Assembly (NCBI GenBank): GCA_947631115.1
Contig: CANRKB010000008.1
Location: 1-64,000 of the forward strand
Direction of reading: 5' to 3'
DNA: 64,000 bases
Source: an uncultured Clostridia bacterium
GTDB taxonomy: Bacteria; Bacillota; Clostridia; Oscillospirales; Ruminococcaceae
The first letter of the stretch is position 1, and each line of letters starts with the position of its first letter. Below the pieces are notes generated by a model. It was not told the DNA's origin. It did no database searches and saw nothing but the letters and a program-made list of their open reading frames with translations. The position numbers and the translations under genes are program-made. Positions 1,153 to 51,537 of this stretch are shown here, one piece after another.

Positions 1153-4100
1153 TTAAGAATTTGGTACAAGCTTAACTTCTACAAGACACGAATCAGGGAA
1201 TACGCTGCTTATTGTAAGCCCTTCGGTTATCTCTATCCATTCTTCTTCCTTCTTGTAATACCATGTGCCTGTATAAATGCCGGCATGACCATCGACATTA
1301 TTTACAAAGTCATCGCTTTGTTCTACATCTACTGCGAAATAAACCGTTTTGCCGTCGGGATCTGTATATTGGAAAATATGTGTAAGAAGATATATTGTCA
1401 ATGACTCATATTCGTTATCAGGCATAAATCCGTCGAGATAATTAGGCGCGTTCATTTCGCCATTACCATTGTCTTGATCAGCATAATTCCATGAGGTATT
1501 ATAAGCTATAAAATGTCTGCCTGCTTTAGCTTCTATGGCTTCTATTATCCCGTCAGGAATTGCATCTCCTTTTTTCAAATCAAATTCAACAGTATAGTAG
1601 TTTGAGCCTGCTCTTGCATTAATGGTCAAAGAGATACCTTCATAAACTATATAATCCTGCTTAATAGGCATATTAAAAAACAGCATTTCATATTGCGGAT
1701 AATTTATGCCTTCTACACTAACTTCATACCCGGGCGAAATATAAGCACTATTTTCAAAAAGACCTCCCGTGTCGTAAATCCACGTACCGTCCGGCAATTC
1801 ATCATATGTATACCTTGAATTTTCTGAAAGGGTTTCGCCTTCCTTGAAATAATAAACAGTTTCAGAGCCGTCGGAGGAATGATATGTAACGGTATAATCA
1901 TAGTCTTTTACTGCTACGATAGTAAAGCGCGCGGCGTTGTATGCAGGATTACTGTTGAGCAATTCGTCATATTTCGTCCAGAAAGTATTTTCGTTAAACT
2001 CTTCGCCTATTTCTTCGCCATCTACAAAATGCCATTTATAACCGACGTCTTCGACATTCGGCAGTAAATCGGGCGAGAAGCCGTCGCCGAGCCAATAAAC
2101 TGTTCCCGGTTTTTTGTTTGCGTCGGTATAATTGAACATACCTTTTACTGCATACAGGTCGGTGTTTGCATTTATGACTGTTCCCGCCTCAACAAAATCA
2201 CATTTTTGGAGCGGATCTGTAATTGGTTCTGAAATAAATCCCGCAATAATTTCGCCAGCCGCAAGGTAGCTAAGGTCGGCGTCGGTGAGCGTATCGCCCG
2301 CCTTCTTGTAAATCATACCATAGAAACTATCTGTTTGCCAAACGCCGTTTGCAAAGCCGTATGATGAAACCCTGTAACCGCTGTAGATGTTAGTATTTTC
2401 ATAAATACTTGTCTGCTCGTAAAATTCGTCATATTCTTCATTTTCGTTCAAGTATATCCAAACGCTGTCGTTTGTAGTTTTGGGCATTTCCATTCCAAGC
2501 GAAGCGAATGACATACCGTCAAGTATTCTATACTCATCGTCATCGTCAAATGTGACAGTATGAATAGTCCAATCGGGCAGGAAGCAGATAGCAAGCTGAG
2601 AGACCTCTTCCCCGTCTGTTACAATATCTTCTGCACAATCGCCGAGAAGCGTACTTGCCGTAAATTCAGGAAGTGTGGATATGTCTAAAATATTCTGCGG
2701 CATTTCGGAGGGCCTTAAGTAAACAGTTTTTCCGACAGTGTAACCCGGCACCTGACTTAAATACTCGGAAATGCTCTGATAAAATTCTTCTTCGGAAATG
2801 TCATAATCAAAGCTGAGCTCGGCGAGACTGTTCAGTTTAAAGTTCTGCAGGTCGGTTACGCCCTCATTGTCGCTATATCCGCCCACATACTTAAACGAAA
2901 CATTGACCTTTATATGAGTATAAACGGCGGTTATTGTTATGTCGGAGTCCACCGTCTTGTCGGCAGGCACTTCGGCGCCGTCAATCGTCCATTTTCCCGT
3001 GTAGAACGCCTTATGCGGCACTTCAACGTTTTGGAGATTTTCCGGCAGATTCGCGCCGTATTCGAGCGTTAAATTATCGGGCATGGTTACGTTGTCTTCT
3101 GCGGTTTCAAATGTTACCGTGAAGGTCTTGATCGTGTAAACCGCCGTTACTGTAACATCCTCTTCAATTGTATAATTAGCGGGAATTTCTTCGCCGTTGA
3201 TTGTCCAAACGCCGGTGTAACCCGTCTTCTCGGGAACGTTGGGGAGTTCGCCGAGCAAGGTTGTGCCGTAGTCAAGAGTTAAGCTTTCGGGAAGGTCGAC
3301 AGTTTCATTGCTGTCGAAGGTTACCGTGTAACGGTTTATAGTGTAAACTGCGGTTACGGTGATGTCTTCTTCAATGACGTAATCAGCAGAAATTTCAGCG
3401 CCGTTAATTGTCCATTTTCCGGTGTAACCCGTCTTGTCGGGTACATTGCCGAGTTTTTCAAGTAGTTTTGTTCCGTAATCGAGCGTTAAATTATCGGGCA
3501 TGGTTACGTTGGGTTCACCAGTTTCAAATGTTACCGTGAACGTTTTTATTGTGTAAACCGCCGTTACTGTAACATCATCTTCAATTACGTAATCAGCGGA
3601 AATTTCGTTGCCGTTGATTGTCCAAACTCCCGTGTAGCCCGTTTTCTCGGGAACGTTGGGAAGTTCGCCGAGCAGGGGTGTGCCATAATCGAGAGTGAGG
3701 TTTTCGGGCATTGCTACGCCGGGTTCATCGGTTTCAAATGTTACCGTGAATGTTTTTATCGTGTAAACTGCGGTTACGGTAACATCGTCTTCAATTGTGT
3801 AATCAGCGGGAATTTCAACACCGTTAATTGTCCAAACTCCCGTGTAGCCCGTTTTCTCGGGAACGTTGGGAAGTTCGCCGAGCAAGGTTGTGCCGTAGTC
3901 AAGAGTTAAACTTCGGGCATAGTTACGCCGGATTCAGTGGTTTCAAAGGTTACCGTGTAGGTCTTAATCGTGTAAACTGCGGTTACGGTAACATCGTCTT
4001 CAATTGTGTAATCAGCGGGAATTTCTTCGCCGTCAATTGTCCATTTGCCGGTGTAACCCGTTTTCTCGGGAACTATTCCAAGCTTTTCGAGAAGTTTTGT

Positions 4101-7100
4101 GCCGTAGTCAAGGGTTAAGTTTTCGGGCATAGTTACGTTGTCTTCTGCGGTTTCAAATGTTACCGTGAACGTTTTTATCGTGTAAACTGCGGTTACGGTT
4201 ATGTTGTCTTCAATGGTATAATCAGCGGGAATTTCGTTGCCGTTGATTGTCCAAACGCCCGTATAACCCATTTTCTCGGGAACGTTGGGAAGTTCGCCGA
4301 GCAGTGTTGTACCATAATTGAGCGTTAAATCTTCGGGCATGGTTACGTCCTCGGCTTCGGTTGTAAACGTTACCGTGAACGTTTTTATCGTGTAGACTGC
4401 GGTTACTGTAACATCGTCTTCAATTGTGTAATCAGCGGAAATTTCCTCGCCGTTAATTGTCCAAACTCCTGTGTAGCCTGTTTTCTCGGGAACTGTTCCG
4501 AGCTTTTCAAGTAAGTTTGTTCCGTAATCAAGAGTTAAATCTTCGGGCATGGTTACGCCATCTTCTGCGGTTTCAAATGTTACCGTGAAGGTTTTAATTG
4601 TGTAAACTGCGGTTACGGTAACATCGTCTTCAATTGTGTAATCAGCAGGAATTTCCTCGCCGTTAATTGTCCAAACGCCCGTGTAGCCCGTCTTCTCGGG
4701 AACATCTCCGAGCTTTTCGAGAAGTTTTGTTCCGTAATCGAGCGTTAAATTATCGGGCATGGTTACGCCGGGTTCGGCGGTTTCAAAGGTTACCGTGTAG
4801 GTCTTAATTGTGTAAACTGCCGTTACTGCAACATCGTCTTCAATTATGTAATCAGCGGGAATTTCGTTGCCGTTAATTGTCCAAACGCCCATGTAGCCTG
4901 TTTTCTCGGGTACTGTTCCGAGCTTTTCGAGTAAGTTCGTTCCGTAATCAAGAGTGAGGTTTTCGGGCATGGTAACGCCGGGTTCGGCGGTTTCAAATGT
5001 TACCGTGTAGGTCTTGATTGTGTAAACCGCCGTTACGGTAACATCGTCTTCAATGGTGTAATCAGCGGGAATTTCCTCGCCGTTAATTGTCCAAACTCCC
5101 GTGTAGCCTGTTTTCTCGGGAACGTTGGGAATTTCGCCGAGCAGGGTTGTGCCATAATCGAGCGTTAAGTTTTCGGGCATGGTTACACCGGGTTCGGCGG
5201 TTTCAAATGTTACCGTGAATGATTTTATCGTGTAAACCGCTGTTACTGTAACATCGTCTTCAATGATGTAATCAGTGGGAATTTCTTCGCCGTCAATTGT
5301 CCAAGCGCCCGTGTAGCCCGTTTTCTCGGGAACTGTTCTGAGCTTTTCGAGAAGTTTTGTTCCATAATCGAGCGTTAAGTTTTCGGGCATTATTACGCCG
5401 GGTTCATCGGTTTCAAATGTTACCGTGAAGGTCTTGATCGTGTAAACTGCGGTTACAGTTATGTTGTCTTCTATGGTGTAATCAGCGGAAATTTCCTCGC
5501 CGTCAATTGTCCAAGCGCCCGTGTAGCCCGTTTTCTCGGGTACATCGCCGAGTCTTTCAAGAAGTTTTGTTCCATAATTGAGCGTTAAATCTTCGGGCAT
5601 GGTTACGCCTTCGGCTACGGTTTCAAATGTTACCGTGAAGGTCTTTATCGTGTAGACTGCTGTTACAGTGACATCGTCTTCAATTGTGTAATCAGCGGGA
5701 ATTTCAGCACCGTTGATTGTCCAAGCGCCAGTGTAGCCCGTTTTCTCGGGAACTATTCCGAGTTTTTCAAGTAAGTTAGTCCCGTAGTCGAGAGTAAGGT
5801 TTTCAGGCATGGTAACGCCGGGTTCAGCGGTTTCAAAGGTTACCGTGAATGTTTTTATCGTGTAAACTGCTGTTACAGTTATGTTGTCTTCAATTATGTA
5901 ATCAGCGGGAATTTCGTTGCCGTCAATTGTCCAAACTCCCGTGTAACCCGTTTTCTCGGGTACATCGCCGAGTCTTTCAAGAAGTTTTGTTCCTTAATCG
6001 AGTGTTAAGTTTTCGGGCATGGTTACGTTGGGTTCGGCGGTTTCAAATGTTACCGTGAACGTTTTTATCGTGTAAACTGCGGTTACGGTAACATCGTCTT
6101 CAATGGTATAATCAGCGGGAATTTTTTCGCCGTTAATTGTCCACTTGCCGGTGTAACCTTTCTTTTCGGGAACTTTGGGAAGTTCGCCGAGCAGGGTTGT
6201 GCCATAATCGAGCGTTAAATTATCGGGCATGGTTACGCCGGGTTCATCGGTTTCAAATGTTACCGTGAATGATTTTATTGTGTAAACTGCCGTTACGGTA
6301 ACATCGTCTTCAATGATGTAATCAGCGGGAATTTCTTCGCCGTTGATTGTCCAAACTCCCGTGTAACCCGTTTTCTCGGGTACATCGCCGAGTTTTTCGA
6401 GAAGTTTTGTTCCATAATCAAGAGTGAGATTTTCGGGCATGATTACACCGGATTCGGCGGTTTCAAATGTTACCGTGTAGGTCTTGATTGTGTAAACTGC
6501 GGTTACGGTAACATCCTCTTCAATTGTATAATCAGCGGGAATTTCTTCGCCGTTGATTGTCCAAACTCCCGTGTAACCCGTTTTCTCGGGTACATCGCCG
6601 AGTTTTTCGAGAAGTTTTGTTCCATAATCAAGAGTGAGATTTTCGGGCATGATTACACCGGATTCGGCGGTTTCAAATGTTACCGTGTAGGTCTTGATTG
6701 TGTAAACTGCGGTTACGGTAACATCCTCTTCAATTGTATAATCAGCGGGAATTTCTTCGCCGTTAATTGTCCATTTGCCGCTATAGCCTTTCTTTTCGGG
6801 GAGTTCGGGGAGATTTTCGGAAAGGTTAGTGCCGTAAATTAAATTGAAATTATCGGGCATTACTATATCGGGATCGGCGGTGTTGAAAGTAACGGTATGC
6901 TCTTCCCCTCTGAGCTTGCGCGCTATGTCCTCATCAAGCACAAGAAGTCCGCTGTTGTCCGAGGTCAAAGCTGTTTTTCTTATTGTCTCGGAAATTCCCG
7001 TGAAATCGGTCTTGTATGGCGGGGAATCCGTGCTGTCACATTTTACGATACCGTCGTTTGTCCTGAAAACAAAATACGCGTTTCCGTCAACATCGGGCGA

Positions 7101-11693: not shown

Positions 11694-11926
11694 ATGACAG
11701 TATACAGTGGAGAGTGTACGCATTGAACGCTTCGCGTACAACGCTGTGGACAGTAGAATGTGTCCGCTTCGCGGACGGATTTAGATTGTTTTTATATTAT
11801 AGACACACAAGCATAACTTTTACGGTAGCGCTCCAAAACGTTTTAGTCCGATAACAATCTAAATAACGCCCGCGCCAGCGGGCACCATAACTGAATACTG
11901 TACCCTGTCCACTGTCAACTGTCAAC
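11694..11926. repeat. interspersed palindromic repeat family 1, copy 1
   Basis: Shares gtgtacgcattgaacgcttcgcgtacaacgctgtg, aaaacgtttt..ccgataacaatctaa and (c)tgtcaactgtcaa terminal sequence with the inverted copy at 49342-49626. Confidence 0.8.
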
Positions 11927-14405
11927 GCGCTTGTCCGTTGACATACTGCCTGTTATAGCGGACGGAGCCGTCGCTGTTATAGTAAACGTAAGTTCCGTTA
12001 TAGAGCTTATCGCCCTTAAACGTTCCCTCTTCAACTATTCGGGTATTGTCGGTGTTGTCCGTTGTTTTTACGCCCTCGCCGTTCATCGCGCCGTTTGAAT
12101 ATTCTCCCTCGTAAATAAAGGTTGAACCTCTCGCGTAATTATACGTAAGCTTTACGGTGCCCGACGCTTCACCGTTTACAAACTGTCCCTCCAAAACGCT
12201 CTTATGACCGCTTTGATAGTTTATGGTTCTCTTTCCCGTGCAGGTAAATTCTCCGTTTACAAAATCGCCCTCGTAAATATAGACGTTCCCACTGTTGTAT
12301 GATACAGTCCTTACGGCTTTGCCGTCAAGATTTCCGTTTTCAAATACTCCGTTATCTTCAATTACGGTGCCGTCGACATAAGTGGTTGTTTTAACGCCGC
12401 TTCCGTTTATTTCGCCGTCTTTGTATCCTCCATTATATTCAAAAGACGTTCCGTCCGTAAACGTATAGCTCATCTTTACGTTGCCGCCTACGTTTCCGTC
12501 TGTAAACTCGCCTTCGACAACGCTTACTTCGCCGTTTTCGTAATGAGTCGTCATTTTGCCGCTGCCCGTCATCTTTCCCTCGGCAAATTCTCCCTCATAG
12601 GTCATTCCGTCCGTTCCCGTAAATTTACCGGTTCCGTCTTTCAAGTCGTTTTTCCATTCGCCCTTGTAAACAGTTCCGTTGGAATAGGTCATTGTACCGA
12701 AACCGTTTCTTTGTCCGTCCGTAAGGTCTCCGATATAAACGCCATCGTCAAACTTCTTCATGATGTTTTTGCCTGTTTCGACTCCGTTTATTGCTGTAAG
12801 AGTGCCGTCGGGACTGTACCTGTACGTCATCGGCTCCGAATATATCTCGATATTTTCCGATCTCTTTACCGAAACAAGTCTGAAATAACTGTCTTCAGTC
12901 GGTTCAAATCCTTTCAGGAATATCCCGTTTTTACCGTCGGAATAATAACTTTCCAAAGCTTCTGTAAGAGTTCCGTTCATTTTGAGGAACAGGACATCGT
13001 CTGCATTTACATTCCATGTTATCCTGACTCCGTCTTTTTTCTCGGCTTTTACATCAGAGGGCGCAGACGGTTTTCCCGAAGGCGTATCGGCAAGCGCGGT
13101 TGTTTTTACCCATTTGGAATTTTCCGTTACACCGTTTTTCTCGGATAAAGTGCGCAGTCTTACTTCAGCCGACTTTACCCCCAACGGAATGGTAACGTAC
13201 AACTGAGCTTTATCCGAAATGCCGTTTGAAACGATATTGTTTTGGCTGTAAACTATATATTCGTAGCCCACCGCGTTTTCAACATCCGCCCATCCGAGCC
13301 TTACCGTGCCGCTGCCGCTGCCTGTTATTTTGATTTCGGGAACGGGAATGTTTTCAGAAAAGCACTCATAGTCATCCTTTGAAGCTTCGGGAAGCCACAA
13401 GCTCATTTCATCCGAATAAACATGAGCTTCCGTGTTTTGGTCGTTGTATGACATATAATCCGTTCCAACGCCGATATACTTTTCGGTTATACCGCTGCTG
13501 CCGTCATTAAGGCACGCGTCGACATAATAATAGTTTCCGTCGTCAAATTTTACGACATTCCAGACATAACCGCTGCTCTGCGCCGTATAGGCGTCTATTT
13601 CCAAAGCGTTTGCCATTGCGCAGAAAGCGAGAGCGTAACCCGTGCAGACCGATTTTCCCGTATTTAAAACCGAGTATGCCGAGCGATATTCTTCGCTTGT
13701 TTCATCGGACGGATATGCGGTGTTTTCGCATATTTTCTTATTTATCGCTCGAATTTTACCAGACGTTGTCGTTTCGTTATTACATTCGGATGTCCAACTC
13801 TCAAGCTTTTCAAAAAACTCGTTTGCTGTTTTCGCGGGATCGGAAATGTCGTCCATAAAACTTCCCAAATGGAAATAAACGTTGTTGGGCGAATACGTCA
13901 GCGAATTGTCCAAAAAGAAATACTGAGGGTTGTTAAGCCTGAACCAGAAAGCTATATTTGCAGCAGTGCTTGCGTTAAGCCCAAGGTCGGAATATTTTGC
14001 GCCTTTGAGCATCTTTTTGTCCGAATACTCCGCCGCTTCATACATTGAGTTCTTTAAATATTCGGAGCAGACCTCGTCGAGCCTGTCGTAAAACGACGCC
14101 TCGTCAGCTGTGAGATTATCCTTTGCGCTAAGGCAGGAATATACGTTCCACTCGCGTTCTTCGATTTCTGTTTCGCCTTTGAAAGAAAGCTCTTTGAATT
14201 TAAGCTCAAGTTCCGCCGCTTCATCTTCGGATATTGACGACACAAAGCCTATATTTTCGGAAAGATCGGGCGTTTCTTTATCCGTAACCGCAATATTTTC
14301 AAGAACAATTTCTTTTATCTCTCCGCCGTTTTCTTGCCCGTCGTTATTTGTACACCCGCCGAGCAGTGCGGCGCATAATACCACTGCAATGACTCTTTTT
14401 TTCAT
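11922..14405 (-). CDS. lipoprotein with transglutaminase-like domain and C-terminal MORN repeats
   Basis: Start adjusted to MKKRVIAVVLCAALLGGC (lipobox). TGK-SVCTGYALAFCAMANAL / YVWNVVKFDDGNYYYVDACLND transglutaminase motifs; repeated YEGEF..G...G.G MORN-like motifs. Confidence 0.85.
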   Translation of the reverse strand: MKKRVIAVVLCAALLGGCTNNDGQENGGEIKEIVLENIAVTDKETPDLSENIGFVSSISEDEAAELELKFKELSFKGETEIEEREWNVYSCLSAKDNLTADEASFYDRLDEVCSEYLKNSMYEAAEYSDKKMLKGAKYSDLGLNASTAANIAFWFRLNNPQYFFLDNSLTYSPNNVYFHLGSFMDDISDPAKTANEFFEKLESWTSECNNETTTSGKIRAINKKICENTAYPSDETSEEYRSAYSVLNTGKSVCTGYALAFCAMANALEIDAYTAQSSGYVWNVVKFDDGNYYYVDACLNDGSSGITEKYIGVGTDYMSYNDQNTEAHVYSDEMSLWLPEASKDDYECFSENIPVPEIKITGSGSGTVRLGWADVENAVGYEYIVYSQNNIVSNGISDKAQLYVTIPLGVKSAEVRLRTLSEKNGVTENSKWVKTTALADTPSGKPSAPSDVKAEKKDGVRITWNVNADDVLFLKMNGTLTEALESYYSDGKNGIFLKGFEPTEDSYFRLVSVKRSENIEIYSEPMTYRYSPDGTLTAINGVETGKNIMKKFDDGVYIGDLTDGQRNGFGTMTYSNGTVYKGEWKNDLKDGTGKFTGTDGMTYEGEFAEGKMTGSGKMTTHYENGEVSVVEGEFTDGNVGGNVKMSYTFTDGTSFEYNGGYKDGEINGSGVKTTTYVDGTVIEDNGVFENGNLDGKAVRTVSYNSGNVYIYEGDFVNGEFTCTGKRTINYQSGHKSVLEGQFVNGEASGTVKLTYNYARGSTFIYEGEYSNGAMNGEGVKTTDNTDNTRIVEEGTFKGDKLYNGTYVYYNSDGSVRYNRQYVNGQAR

Positions 14406-25178: not shown

Positions 25179-25312
25179 CAGGCTGTCGATAAAGCCCCAT
25201 CTGCGTTGTCAGCGGCAATGCAACAGCCACAAAGGCTAGTTGCATTGCCGCTTCAGTGTTGTGCGCCGCAGGCGCTCAATACGAGCATACTGGGGCTTTC
25301 TCAACAGCCTGA
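25179..25312. repeat. hairpin repeat family 2, copy 1
   Basis: caggctgtcgataaagccccatctgcgttgtcagcg...actggggctttctcaacagcctg with inner perfect stem gcggcaatgcaac/gttgcattgccgc. Confidence 0.8.
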
Positions 25313-25400
25313 AATTTCTCATTTCACACTATCTGAAATTTAATTGTTTATTATAATTGTAATTGATGTCAGTGAAAAATATGTGAACCGAAAATGAAAC

Positions 25401-41203: not shown

Positions 41204-42580
41204 TCAATAATATGTGTATTCGTAATTTGACGGATTTACCGCAACGCCGTCTACACGAACCTCAAAGTGCAGATGATAACCCGTACTCCAGCCCGTCGTG
41301 CCGACGTTTCCTATAACGTCGCCCTGATTTACCTGCTGACCTTTTGAAACGTTTATTTTCTGACAATGAGCGTACATAGTAGAGATCCCGCCGCCGTGGT
41401 CGATTATTATGTAGTTTCCGTAACCGCCGCCGCAGCCGCAGCTGTATTGTTTTCCGTAATTGTGCGGGCAGCCCGTGTATACCGTGATTACTTTACCCGA
41501 CTGGACTGCGCGTATTTCCGCTCCTGCAATGGAAGTCGTCGACCCGACTATGTCGAGTCCCCTATGCTGTCCGTTTCTCCAAGGGTCATATCCGAAAGGA
41601 GTGGAGATCCTCCGGAATTTCGAGCTGACGGGCCAAATGAAACCGTCCGCAGAGTAGTTCGGCTGTCCGTTGTTTTTCTCCTGCTCCAGTCTGATAAGCT
41701 CTTCGAGTTCTTGATTAAGTTCGTCCATTCTCTTCATGGACTCTTTTTCGTCGTACTGCAGAGCGCTTACTTTATTCATAAGCTCTGTGTTCTGCCGGGC
41801 AAGGCTCTGAAGATAATCTTTTTGCTGAGCTGCGTAACTGTCAAGCTCTGCTTTGGAGCTTTTCAGAGCAGCCATGTCTTTTTCAAGCTGAACTTTTTCT
41901 TCCGAAAGCTCGGTTTTTTCCTGCTCAAGTTTACTTATTTCATCTTTCAGATCTTCTATAAGCTTTTCCTGGTCCTTTATATCCGCAAGCAGCTTTTTCA
42001 TAAAGTTCAGGTTTTGCGTGCTTATGTTCTTTATTACGTCCGAATAAACGAAATAATCATACCAGTCGTCAGAGCCGCTAAGTATAGGGATAGTATCCGA
42101 AACGTCGTTCATGTACATCGCTCTCGCAAGCTCGCCGAAGCGTTTGAGATTTTCCTTATTCTTCGCCTCAAGCTCCGAGATATAAGCCTTTTTGTTTTCT
42201 ATGTCTGTTTCTTTGCTCTGTACCTCTCGTTCAACGTTTTCTATCTCTATCTGCTTATCGTCGATGCTTTGCTTTTGCGCAAGTATAAGCTCCCCGTATT
42301 TTTCTATTTCAAGCGTTACGCCGTCTATATGCTCGTTTACGAGCTTTATCGAGGCTTTGTTCTCGTTTATATCCCCGTTAAGTCCCTCTATCTGTTCTTT
42401 GCGCTTTTCATTTTCTTCCTTTATTTTGTCTATCTGCGCCTGCAAGTCGTCAATGCTCGTACTTCCCGAAGCGCTGTTTTCACTGAGAAAAGCCGCGTTC
42501 GGCAAAGTCAACGCCACTACAGCCGCGCATATTGCCGAACATATTTTCACTCCGAACGGCAAATGCCTTTTTTGTGACAT
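41204..42580 (-). CDS. coiled-coil + M23 (LytM) peptidase, EnvC-like, secreted
   Basis: Signal peptide, coiled coil, HRGLDIVG ... HCQKINVSKGQQVNQGDVIGNVGTTGWSTGYHLHFEVR. Confidence 0.92.
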   Translation of the reverse strand: MSQKRHLPFGVKICSAICAAVVALTLPNAAFLSENSASGSTSIDDLQAQIDKIKEENEKRKEQIEGLNGDINENKASIKLVNEHIDGVTLEIEKYGELILAQKQSIDDKQIEIENVEREVQSKETDIENKKAYISELEAKNKENLKRFGELARAMYMNDVSDTIPILSGSDDWYDYFVYSDVIKNISTQNLNFMKKLLADIKDQEKLIEDLKDEISKLEQEKTELSEEKVQLEKDMAALKSSKAELDSYAAQQKDYLQSLARQNTELMNKVSALQYDEKESMKRMDELNQELEELIRLEQEKNNGQPNYSADGFIWPVSSKFRRISTPFGYDPWRNGQHRGLDIVGSTTSIAGAEIRAVQSGKVITVYTGCPHNYGKQYSCGCGGGYGNYIIIDHGGGISTMYAHCQKINVSKGQQVNQGDVIGNVGTTGWSTGYHLHFEVRVDGVAVNPSNYEYTYY

Positions 42581-49306: not shown

Positions 49307-49342
49307 AACCGCCGCCCGTTACGCCCAACGGACGGCGGTTTT
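49307..49342 (+). terminator. intrinsic terminator after ilvC
   Basis: aaccgccgcccgtt-acgcc-caacggacggcggttttgg. Confidence 0.85.
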
Positions 49343-49626
49343 GGCAGTTGACAGTTTACAGTGTACAGTATTCAGTTATGGTGTCCGCTTCGCGGATAAT
49401 ATTAGATTGTTATCGAACTAAAACGTTTTGAAATATACCCATAAAGATGGGCTTGTGTGCCTGTTTATTAAAATCAATTTAAATCTTATCCGCCGCAAGG
49501 CGGATACCTTTGCTGTACACTGTACACAGCGTTGTACGCGAAGCGTTCAATGCGTACACTGAATACTGTATAAATGCGTTGTGCATTTTATACTGTGTAC
49601 CGATATTGTAAACCTTATATTGTCAA
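49342..49626. repeat. interspersed palindromic repeat family 1, copy 2 (inverted)
   Basis: Reverse complement matches copy 1: cagtgtacgcattgaacgcttcgcgtacaacgctgtg; ttagattgttatcg..ctaaaacgtttt; starts cagttgacagtttacagtgtacag. Confidence 0.8.
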
Positions 49627-50975
49627 TAAACATCGTGGTACGTATACTTGAGCGGGTCAACTCTTACTCCGTTCTCGCGCACCTCAAAATGCAAATGCTC
49701 GCCCTGCGACCAACCCGTTGTTCCTACTATCGCAATAACATCGCTTTTTGACACCGTTTGGCCGACGCTTACGTAAATCTTCCGGCAATGAGCGTAAAGC
49801 GTGGAGATCCCGCCGCCATGGTCGATTATTACGTAGTTTCCGAAACCGCCTCCGCAGCCGCAGCTGTAATTCTTCCCGTAATCATGCGGGCAGCCCGTGT
49901 AAACTTTTATGACCTTTCCCGACTGAACGGCGTAAATGTTCCTGCTTGAAACCGAAACGTCCGTCCCGACTATATCTATACCGCCGTGATTTCTTCCGCC
50001 AAAAGCCGTATCCCAGCCGAAATATGTAGTAAGCCTGTGAAATTCGGGGTCAAGCGGCCACCTGAAATCGCTGCTGTGGTCTTCGGTGCTTCCCTGTCCG
50101 CTTTGCTGTAACTTTCTTATCTCTTCCTGAAGCTGCCTGTCATACTCTTCTATCTCTTTATTAGTTTTGTCAATATCGTAGTTCAGACCGTCTACTTTGT
50201 TCTTCAATTCATTGTTATCCGCAACTAAGCTGTAAAGATAATTCTTTTGCTCTGCGGCGTAGTCGTCGAGCCTTTTTCGTTCGTCTTTCAGCTCGGACAT
50301 CTCGCTGTCGAGCTTCTCTTTTTGCTGCTGAAGGCTCTGCTTATCTTGCTCAAGCTGCTGTTTTTCGCTTTCAAGATCATTTATCATCTGTTCGCAGCTT
50401 TTTATCGACGCAGTCAGTCTTTTCATAAAACCAAGGCTCTGTTCGCTTATGTTTTTAATGACGTCCGAATAGACAAAATAATCGTACCAATCGTCCGAGC
50501 CGCTGAGTATAGGGACGGTGTCCGAAACATCATTCATATACATTGCTCTTGCAAGCTCGCCGAAACGTTTTAGGTTTTCCTCGTTTCTTTCCTGAAGTTC
50601 GGAGATCTCGGAATTTTTGTTTTCGATCTCAATTTCTTTATCGCCAATCGATTTTTCTGCGGTTTCTATCTCGGCTTTTTTTGCGTCGATCTCCGCTTGC
50701 TTTGCGATAATAAGCTGACCGCTTTTGGTTATCTCGTCGTTTATGCTGTCTATCTGTTCGTTTATAAGCTCGATAAGTTTATCGTTGTCGCTCATCTCGC
50801 TTTTATATTTATCAATAAGCTGCTTTCTCTGTTCGTTTTCTTTACGCTTAGCGTCTATCTGCGACTGAAGCCCCTCGACTGAAGAGCTGTCGGCTCTAGA
50901 CAGCGGAACTACCGCTAGCACAGCCGTCAGAAAGACAGCGCACACTTTTTTTAAAAATGACGTTTTTCTCCCCAT
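49623..50975 (-). CDS. coiled-coil + M23 (LytM) peptidase, paralog of 41204-42580
   Basis: HGGIDIVG ... HCRKIYVSVGQTVSKSDVIAIVGTTGWSQGEHLHFEVR; shared block FGELARAMYMNDVSDTVPILSGSDDWYDYFVYSDVIKNIS. Confidence 0.92.
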   Translation of the reverse strand: MGRKTSFLKKVCAVFLTAVLAVVPLSRADSSSVEGLQSQIDAKRKENEQRKQLIDKYKSEMSDNDKLIELINEQIDSINDEITKSGQLIIAKQAEIDAKKAEIETAEKSIGDKEIEIENKNSEISELQERNEENLKRFGELARAMYMNDVSDTVPILSGSDDWYDYFVYSDVIKNISEQSLGFMKRLTASIKSCEQMINDLESEKQQLEQDKQSLQQQKEKLDSEMSELKDERKRLDDYAAEQKNYLYSLVADNNELKNKVDGLNYDIDKTNKEIEEYDRQLQEEIRKLQQSGQGSTEDHSSDFRWPLDPEFHRLTTYFGWDTAFGGRNHGGIDIVGTDVSVSSRNIYAVQSGKVIKVYTGCPHDYGKNYSCGCGGGFGNYVIIDHGGGISTLYAHCRKIYVSVGQTVSKSDVIAIVGTTGWSQGEHLHFEVRENGVRVDPLKYTYHDVY

Positions 50976-51179
50976 AATTTTCCTCTCCAAAACAAGCCGG
51001 ACAAAACGCTTTTACAGCACATACTTCTTATGTTTAATTATATCATTTTCGACAAAAATTGTCAAGGAAAATATGAAGTTCTCTCATTTATTGCTTTTAA
51101 TAAAACTTAACGAACTTATATTACCGCTCTGAGGTTTTTCGTACTGAATGTACTTTCACGGTCAAAGCATTTCCGTAAG

Positions 51180-51330
51180 ATTGCCGTTTCAAAGCACGGC
51201 TTTGAAACGGCAATGCGGGGAAAACTCTTGTTTTCCCCGCACCCCAGGTTCAATGCCGAAGGCATTGAACCTGATGCGCTGTTTAAGCGTTATTGAGGGA
51301 AAACTTTTTTGAAAAAAAGTTTTCCCTCAA
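51180..51330. repeat. cluster of four consecutive perfect or near-perfect hairpins
   Basis: attgccgtttcaaag/ctttgaaacggcaat; tgcggggaaaac/gttttccccgca; caggttcaatgcc/ggcattgaacctg; ttgagggaaaactttttt/aaaaaagttttccctcaa. Confidence 0.88.
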
Positions 51331-51429
51331 GCTCCCTTTCAAAAAACTTTCGTGCGCCGCTCGTTTTGTAGTTTAAACTCAAACGTTGTTCGCCGCTCAA
51401 AACAGCTTCTAATCCCTTGCAAACACTCT

Positions 51430-51537
51430 TCAGACTGTATAGAAAGCCCCAGATGTAAGAAAGCGTGGCTACGGCTAGGCTTTGTGCCTGCCGTAGTCAC
51501 GCTGACAACGCAGATGGGGCTTTATATACAGTCTGAA
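51430..51537. repeat. hairpin repeat family 2, copy 2 (inverted)
   Basis: Reverse complement shares aaagccccatctgcgttgtcagcg and the cacaaag loop with copy 1; outer arms cagactgtat/atacagtctg. Confidence 0.8.

What the first reader, a model, noticed from the sequence alone, without database searches (positions are those of the whole stretch)
25179..25312. Hairpin repeat family 2: conserved arms and loop, divergent but still paired stems
Copy 1 (25179-25312) and the reverse complement of copy 2 (51430-51537) share AAAGCCCCATCTGCGTTGTCAGCG and the AGSCACAAAGSCTAG loop. Their inner stems differ in sequence (gcaatgcaac/gttgcattgc versus tgactacggc/gccgtagcca), yet each is self-complementary. Retained pairing despite sequence change looks like compensatory covariation, i.e. 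selection on, or replication through, a DNA/RNA hairpin.
Basis: seen in the sequence. Interest (0 to 1): 0.7.

Follow-up and report, generated by a model that had tools for sequence, protein, structure and literature searches.

The report
Tiny transposon with strand-specific folded hairpin
The hairpins are copies of a roughly 107-160 base mobile element without genes, present at about 58 places in this gut bacterium's genome, apparently moved by a borrowed transposase that inserts at gene-end hairpins, and its fold has been kept through matching base changes with a bias showing that one particular strand has to fold.

Summary
The pair at 25179-25312 and 51430-51536 belongs to a family with about 58 sites in this genome and copies in 33 of 36 congeneric genomes, none in other genera tested. 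In 52 gapless copies 97.3% of pair cells are standard pairs and 24 of 42 pairs show changes on both sides, far above shuffled and slid controls.

It is a MITE-like element: terminal inverted repeats TCAGACTGTATAWAAAG, no gene, empty sites in related species, and target duplications of about 7 bp or of a whole terminator hairpin (20-34 bp). Intact IS1182-family insertion sequences in two congeners have closely similar ends and also duplicate whole terminator hairpins; they are the likely source of transposase, though none was found in this genome. REP/IS200-type transposases are absent here. The fold's purpose is unproven: orientation to genes is random and private changes look neutral, so selection seems to act on propagating lineages. 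Optional hairpin modules favour the opposite strand, which is unexplained.

The parts
25179..25312 (-). Copy 1 of the element core (long variant, 134 bp); the constrained fold is on the - strand
25179..25194 (+). Copy 1 left terminal inverted repeat CAGGCTGTCGATAAAG, also the outer arm of the hairpin
25224..25239 (-). Copy 1 conserved apical hairpin CTAGCCTTTGTGGCTG (loop UUUGU, bulged A)
25256..25282 (+). Copy 1 optional hairpin module GTGTTGTGCGCC-GCA-GGCGCTCAATAC
   Evidence: sequence; module family
25313..25336 (+). Copy 1 degraded right tail ending in the far terminal repeat (..ACTATCTGA)
   Evidence: sequence; comparison with tailed copies
51430..51536 (+). Copy 2 (short form, 107 bp, no tail); the constrained fold is on the + strand
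51430..51451 (+). Copy 2 P1 5' arm, pairs with 51515-51536
51515..51536 (+). Copy 2 P1 3' arm and terminal inverted repeat
51462..51475 (+). Copy 2 inner stem P3 5' strand, pairs with 51490-51503; carries most of the compensatory changes across the family
51452..51453 (+). One side of the conserved GA/GA internal loop (other side 51513-51514)

Best explanation
The repeats are a non-autonomous transposable element (MITE-like) of one genus of uncultured Clostridia. An IS1182-family transposase supplied in trans recognises its ends (TCAGACTGTATAWAAAG), inserts it at hairpins, preferably intrinsic terminators, and duplicates either about 7 bp or the whole hairpin (shown: ends, duplications, empty sites; inferred: that this transposase does it). 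The body is a long hairpin: P1, a GA/GA internal loop, a 3-bp helix, a second internal loop, a long inner stem and an apical UUUGU hairpin. Its fold on one strand is conserved by compensatory change (shown). Selection on that fold acts on lineages that propagate, not on every resident copy (inferred from random gene orientation and neutral-looking private changes). The most likely way it works is that the folded strand, as RNA when the site is transcribed or as single-stranded DNA, helps the element persist or spread, for example by making an insertion tolerable in transcribed regions or by being handled as a hairpin by the transposition machinery (inferred, unproven). The hairpin body and tail can later be lost by slippage between short direct repeats (inferred from two sites).
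For: Copies: about 58 sites in this genome, 33/36 congeners, 0/24 other families of the order, 0/195 other genomes of the class. Structure: 97.3% of cells paired, 24/42 pairs changed on both sides, covariation score 0.316 versus 0.128 shuffled and 0.03-0.07 slid; 5 structural pairs significant in a tree-aware test. Strand: inner stems 144 GU versus 17 AC; inferred events WC->GU 40.6 versus WC->AC 14.6, p=0.0004, with AU->GU 12.5 versus AU->AC 2.6, while unpaired columns show G>A above C>T, so cytosine deamination on that strand does not explain it. The bias holds in both gene orientations. Mobility: target duplications score >=7 in 21 of 83 tailed copies versus 0.5 expected, and the longest (20-34 bp) are hairpins; the copy-1 site is empty in G033, G022, G006 and G012, and the copy-2 site is empty in G005. 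Partner: IS1182-family elements in G033 and G020 have ends TCAGTCTGTATATAAACCCC / TCAGCCTGTCGAAAAAGTCA and duplicated whole terminators.
Against: No IS1182 transposase is found in this genome or its closest congeners; a short-read MAG may have lost it. IS1182 presence and element copy number do not track each other (G020 has the IS, no element). The optional hairpin modules favour folding on the opposite strand (G-T at the third pair in 44/51, i.e. A-C on the core's strand). No promoter was identified by eye and no RNA data exist. Three pairs supply most of the GU excess in cells, although the event count remains biased.
Confidence: 0.7

Rival explanations
1. No selection on the fold: templated correction of one hairpin arm by the other (quasi-palindrome correction during replication) regenerates perfect palindromes and mimics compensatory change.
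For: 52 whole-pair WC-to-WC changes were inferred in one step; strictly private pair states are GU 9 = AC 9 with 13 other mismatches.
Against: Correction is strand-symmetric and should leave GU = AC among uncorrected pairs, but shared states are 144 GU versus 17 AC on one strand. Internal-loop GA/GA, the apical loop and the bulged A are also nearly invariant though unpaired.
Confidence: 0.13
2. A host regulatory RNA (cis element or small RNA) in many copies, maintained at each site for gene regulation.
For: Conserved structure; copy 1 lies about 15 bp upstream of an ABC-transporter ATPase gene, co-directional with it; copies are intergenic.
Against: Orientation to flanking genes is balanced: 22 sense/sense, 19 antisense/antisense. 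Orthologous sites are empty or have lost the hairpin. Transposon hallmarks. No Rfam match at gathering.
Confidence: 0.07
3. A REP-like element mobilised by a RAYT or IS200/IS605 Y1 transposase acting on a single-stranded hairpin.
For: Strand-specific hairpin; multi-copy.
Against: No Y1_Tnp in this genome; present in only 8/41 congeners, none of them the closest ones. Inverted terminal repeats and target duplications are not expected for that class (general knowledge).
Confidence: 0.03

Closest known systems
BOX elements of Streptococcus pneumoniae (PMC3049150)
   Same: Small interspersed, modular, TIR-bearing repeats with strong predicted RNA folds, proposed to be mobilised by a resident IS (ISSpn2) through similar ends; variable internal hairpin modules.
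   Different: No sequence relation was tested. Here whole terminator hairpins are duplicated and compensatory change with a one-strand GU bias is measured; the word compensatory does not occur in PMC3049150.
IS1272/TnSha1 of staphylococci, IS1182 family (PMC4923244)
   Same: IS1182-family transposase; insertion into hairpins, mostly terminators, without primary-sequence preference.
   Different: IS1272 is reported to make blunt cuts with partial deletion of the hairpin and no target duplication; here the whole hairpin or about 7 bp is duplicated.
IS1630 of Mycoplasma fermentans, IS30 family (from memory)
   Same: Remembered as targeting and duplicating terminator-like inverted repeats of variable length.
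   Different: Different transposase family; no IS30 transposase in this genome.

Membership tests
MITE | short, non-coding, many copies | tested here: met
   107-160 bp (up to about 185 with tail and modules), about 58 sites
MITE | terminal inverted repeats | tested here: met
   TCAGACTGTATAWAAAG, 192 genome matches, about 3 per copy, versus 15 for the reversed pattern
MITE | target site duplications | tested here: met
   21/83 tailed copies at score >=7 versus 0.5 in shuffled flank pairs
MITE | empty sites in relatives | tested here: met
   copy-1 and copy-2 loci
IS1182-mobilised element | ends shared with an autonomous IS1182 element | tested here: met
   similar but not identical ends in L263 (G033) and L264 (G020)
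IS1182-mobilised element | transposase present in the same genome | tested here: not met
   no NF033551 match in G000 at E<=0.001; the assembly is an incomplete MAG
IS1182-mobilised element | transposition by that transposase | not testable with these tools
   needs an assay
REP/RAYT or IS200/IS605 | Y1 transposase in the genome | tested here: not met
   0 matches of PF01797 in G000
IS30 (IS1630-like) | IS30 transposase in the genome | tested here: not met
   0 matches of NF033563
Rfam-described RNA families | match at gathering score | tested here: not met
   none; permissive matches only chance-like
BOX elements | boxA/boxB/boxC sequence modules | not tested
   only architecture compared

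The most novel reading that the evidence does not exclude
A DNA transposon derivative whose spread depends on one of its strands folding into a specific RNA (or single-stranded DNA) structure, into which separate mobile hairpin modules are slotted in fixed orientation.
Probability: 0.25. Interest if true: 0.8.

Novelty: new variant of a known kind. Interest (0 to 1): 0.55.

Why it matters
MITE folds are usually predicted, not shown to be selected. Here dozens of copies per genome and over 30 congeneric genomes give a measurable test: compensatory change plus a GU/AC strand bias. It offers a natural data set to ask why a gene-less transposon needs a folded strand, and it extends the IS1182 hairpin-targeting theme to duplication of whole terminators.

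Tried and rejected
IS30 transposase in the own genome: none. Y1/RAYT: none in the own genome. Rfam at gathering and permissive thresholds: no credible family. Viral contigs with the core pattern: none. Host-gene orientation bias: none. Cytosine deamination on one strand as the cause of GU excess: not supported, since AU->GU also exceeds AU->AC and unpaired columns show the reverse. Inversion of copy 2 in G002/G005: rejected; it is a separate insertion in the 5' region of the LytTR gene, about 100 bp away. Apical loop UUUGU to internal-loop ACRA contact: the loop columns hardly vary, so untestable.

Full report
OBSERVATION. Copy 1 (25179-25312) and copy 2 (51430-51536, opposite orientation) are present as described. 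The shared 18-mer occurs only at these two places in the window, against 0.03 expected at up to three mismatches. Copy 2 folds to -73.3 kcal/mol on the + strand, z -12. A covariance model built from 52 gapless copies finds about 58 sites in this 2.06-Mb genome when the better strand is taken at each place (my count from its list). It finds copies in 33 of 36 other genomes of the genus, none in 24 other families of the order and none in 195 other genomes across the class, including another genus of the same family. Named relatives are gut MAGs labelled Clostridia or Oscillospiraceae, from samples named Lapin, water deer colon and others. No viral contig holds the core pattern.

ANATOMY. Many copies have a further tail of about 24 bp ending in a second terminal repeat, TTTTTATACAGTCTGA. 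Longer copies carry an 11-bp hairpin module of the form GCGTTNT..NNNAATGC at one or two fixed positions.

COVARIATION. On alignment A1, 97.3% of cells are standard pairs and 24 of 42 pairs have changes on both sides; the covariation score is 0.316, against 0.128 in column shuffles and 0.03-0.07 when partners are slid. In a tree-aware test that I wrote (APC-corrected G-test, null from re-placing inferred substitutions on the tree) nine column pairs are significant; five are pairs of the structure, and the other four link columns 45, 50, 58 and 62, which mark two subtypes. This is a home-made analogue of R-scape, not R-scape itself.

STRAND. In 85 distinct copies the inner stems hold 144 G-U but only 17 A-C on the favoured strand. 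Three pairs supply most of these cells, so I also counted inferred events: 40.6 WC->GU versus 14.6 WC->AC, p = 0.0004. The bias is present from A-U pairs (12.5 versus 2.6) and from G-C pairs (28.1 versus 12.0), while unpaired columns show the opposite of C>T excess. Excess cytosine deamination on that strand therefore does not explain it, and strand-symmetric templated correction should not give it. The bias is the same whichever way the copy lies relative to its neighbours (13:2 and 21:0). States found in only one copy are balanced (GU 9, AC 9, other mismatches 13), which suggests that constraint acts on propagating lineages while resident copies drift. That last step is an inference from small numbers. 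The data cannot tell RNA from single-stranded DNA.

MOBILITY. The copy-1 site lacks the element in G033, G022, G006 and G012; in G009 and G005 a 43-bp remnant with both ends remains, consistent with slippage between AGCC repeats (inference). The copy-2 site is empty in G005, and G002 and G005 share a different insertion about 100 bp away, in the 5' region of the LytTR regulator gene; that insertion has an extra module and the tail in G005 but not in G002. Flanks of 83 tailed copies show direct duplications at score >=7 in 21 cases against 0.5 in shuffled pairings. They fall mostly into two classes: 7-11 bp, mostly AT-rich, and 20-34 bp in which the duplicated sequence is itself a hairpin, such as ATCCGCTCTCAAAATAAGAGAGCGGAT. 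A longer repeat (about 245-330 bp) with a different interior has the same ends and also duplicates terminators.

PARTNER. IS1182-family transposases (NF033551, PF05598, PF13751) sit in G033 and G020 between ends TCAGCTTGTCCAAAAACCCC / TCAGTCTGTATATAAACCCC and TCAGCCTGTCGAAAAAGTCA / TCAGTCTGTCGAAAAACGGTCA. Each is flanked by two copies of a complete terminator, 34 bp in G033 and about 21 bp in G020. Ends and target habit match the element closely but not exactly. The own genome has no such transposase, no IS30 and no Y1 transposase. IS1272 of the same family is reported to insert into terminator hairpins, but with blunt deletion and no duplication (PMC4923244).

FUNCTION. Copies are essentially all intergenic with no orientation preference (22 sense/sense, 19 antisense/antisense, 17 mixed). 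Copy 1 lies between a riboflavin kinase/FAD synthetase gene and an ABC ATPase gene, co-directional with both; copy 2 lies between an M23 peptidase and a LytTR regulator. A site-by-site regulatory role is therefore unlikely. I commit to a non-autonomous IS1182-type element whose folded strand helps it persist or spread; how it does so is open. One observation does not fit: the optional modules keep a G-T pair on the opposite strand (44 of 51), that is A-C on the core's favoured strand, always in the same orientation. They may be independent hairpins slotted into the core.

Noticed in passing
window 11701-11940 and 49326-49572: A second repeat family of roughly 240 bp in inverted copies, containing the same GCGTTGTACGCGAAGCGTTCAATGC hairpin module as the long copies of this element.
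   Followed up: partly
own genome, 50 places (27 outside this family), e.g. window 11720-11744 and 49529-49553: Hairpin module GCGTTNT..NNNAATGC occurs 50 times against 0 for the reversed pattern, with stems that differ but still pair; it looks like an independent nested palindrome.
   Followed up: partly
window 51080-51420: Repeat of about 290 bp next to copy 2, many copies at 80-93% identity in this and related genomes.
   Followed up: no
L165, L166, L168, L157, L158, L172: Longer element (about 245-330 bp) with the same terminal repeats but a different interior, inserted at terminators and duplicating them.
   Followed up: partly
L156, L159, L161: Minimal remnants consisting of little more than the two terminal repeats.
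   Followed up: partly
window 3044-6967: Tandem array of 18 units of 210 bp, 60-88% identical, period divisible by 3, probably a repeat protein.
   Followed up: no
window 41349-42214 and 49771-50639: Two regions 74-75% identical, one inside the M23 peptidase gene at 49623-50990; likely paralogues.
   Followed up: no
L264, L266, L279: Some IS1182 elements of the genus have a terminator-like hairpin just inside an end, its T-run near or overlapping the terminal repeat.
   Followed up: no
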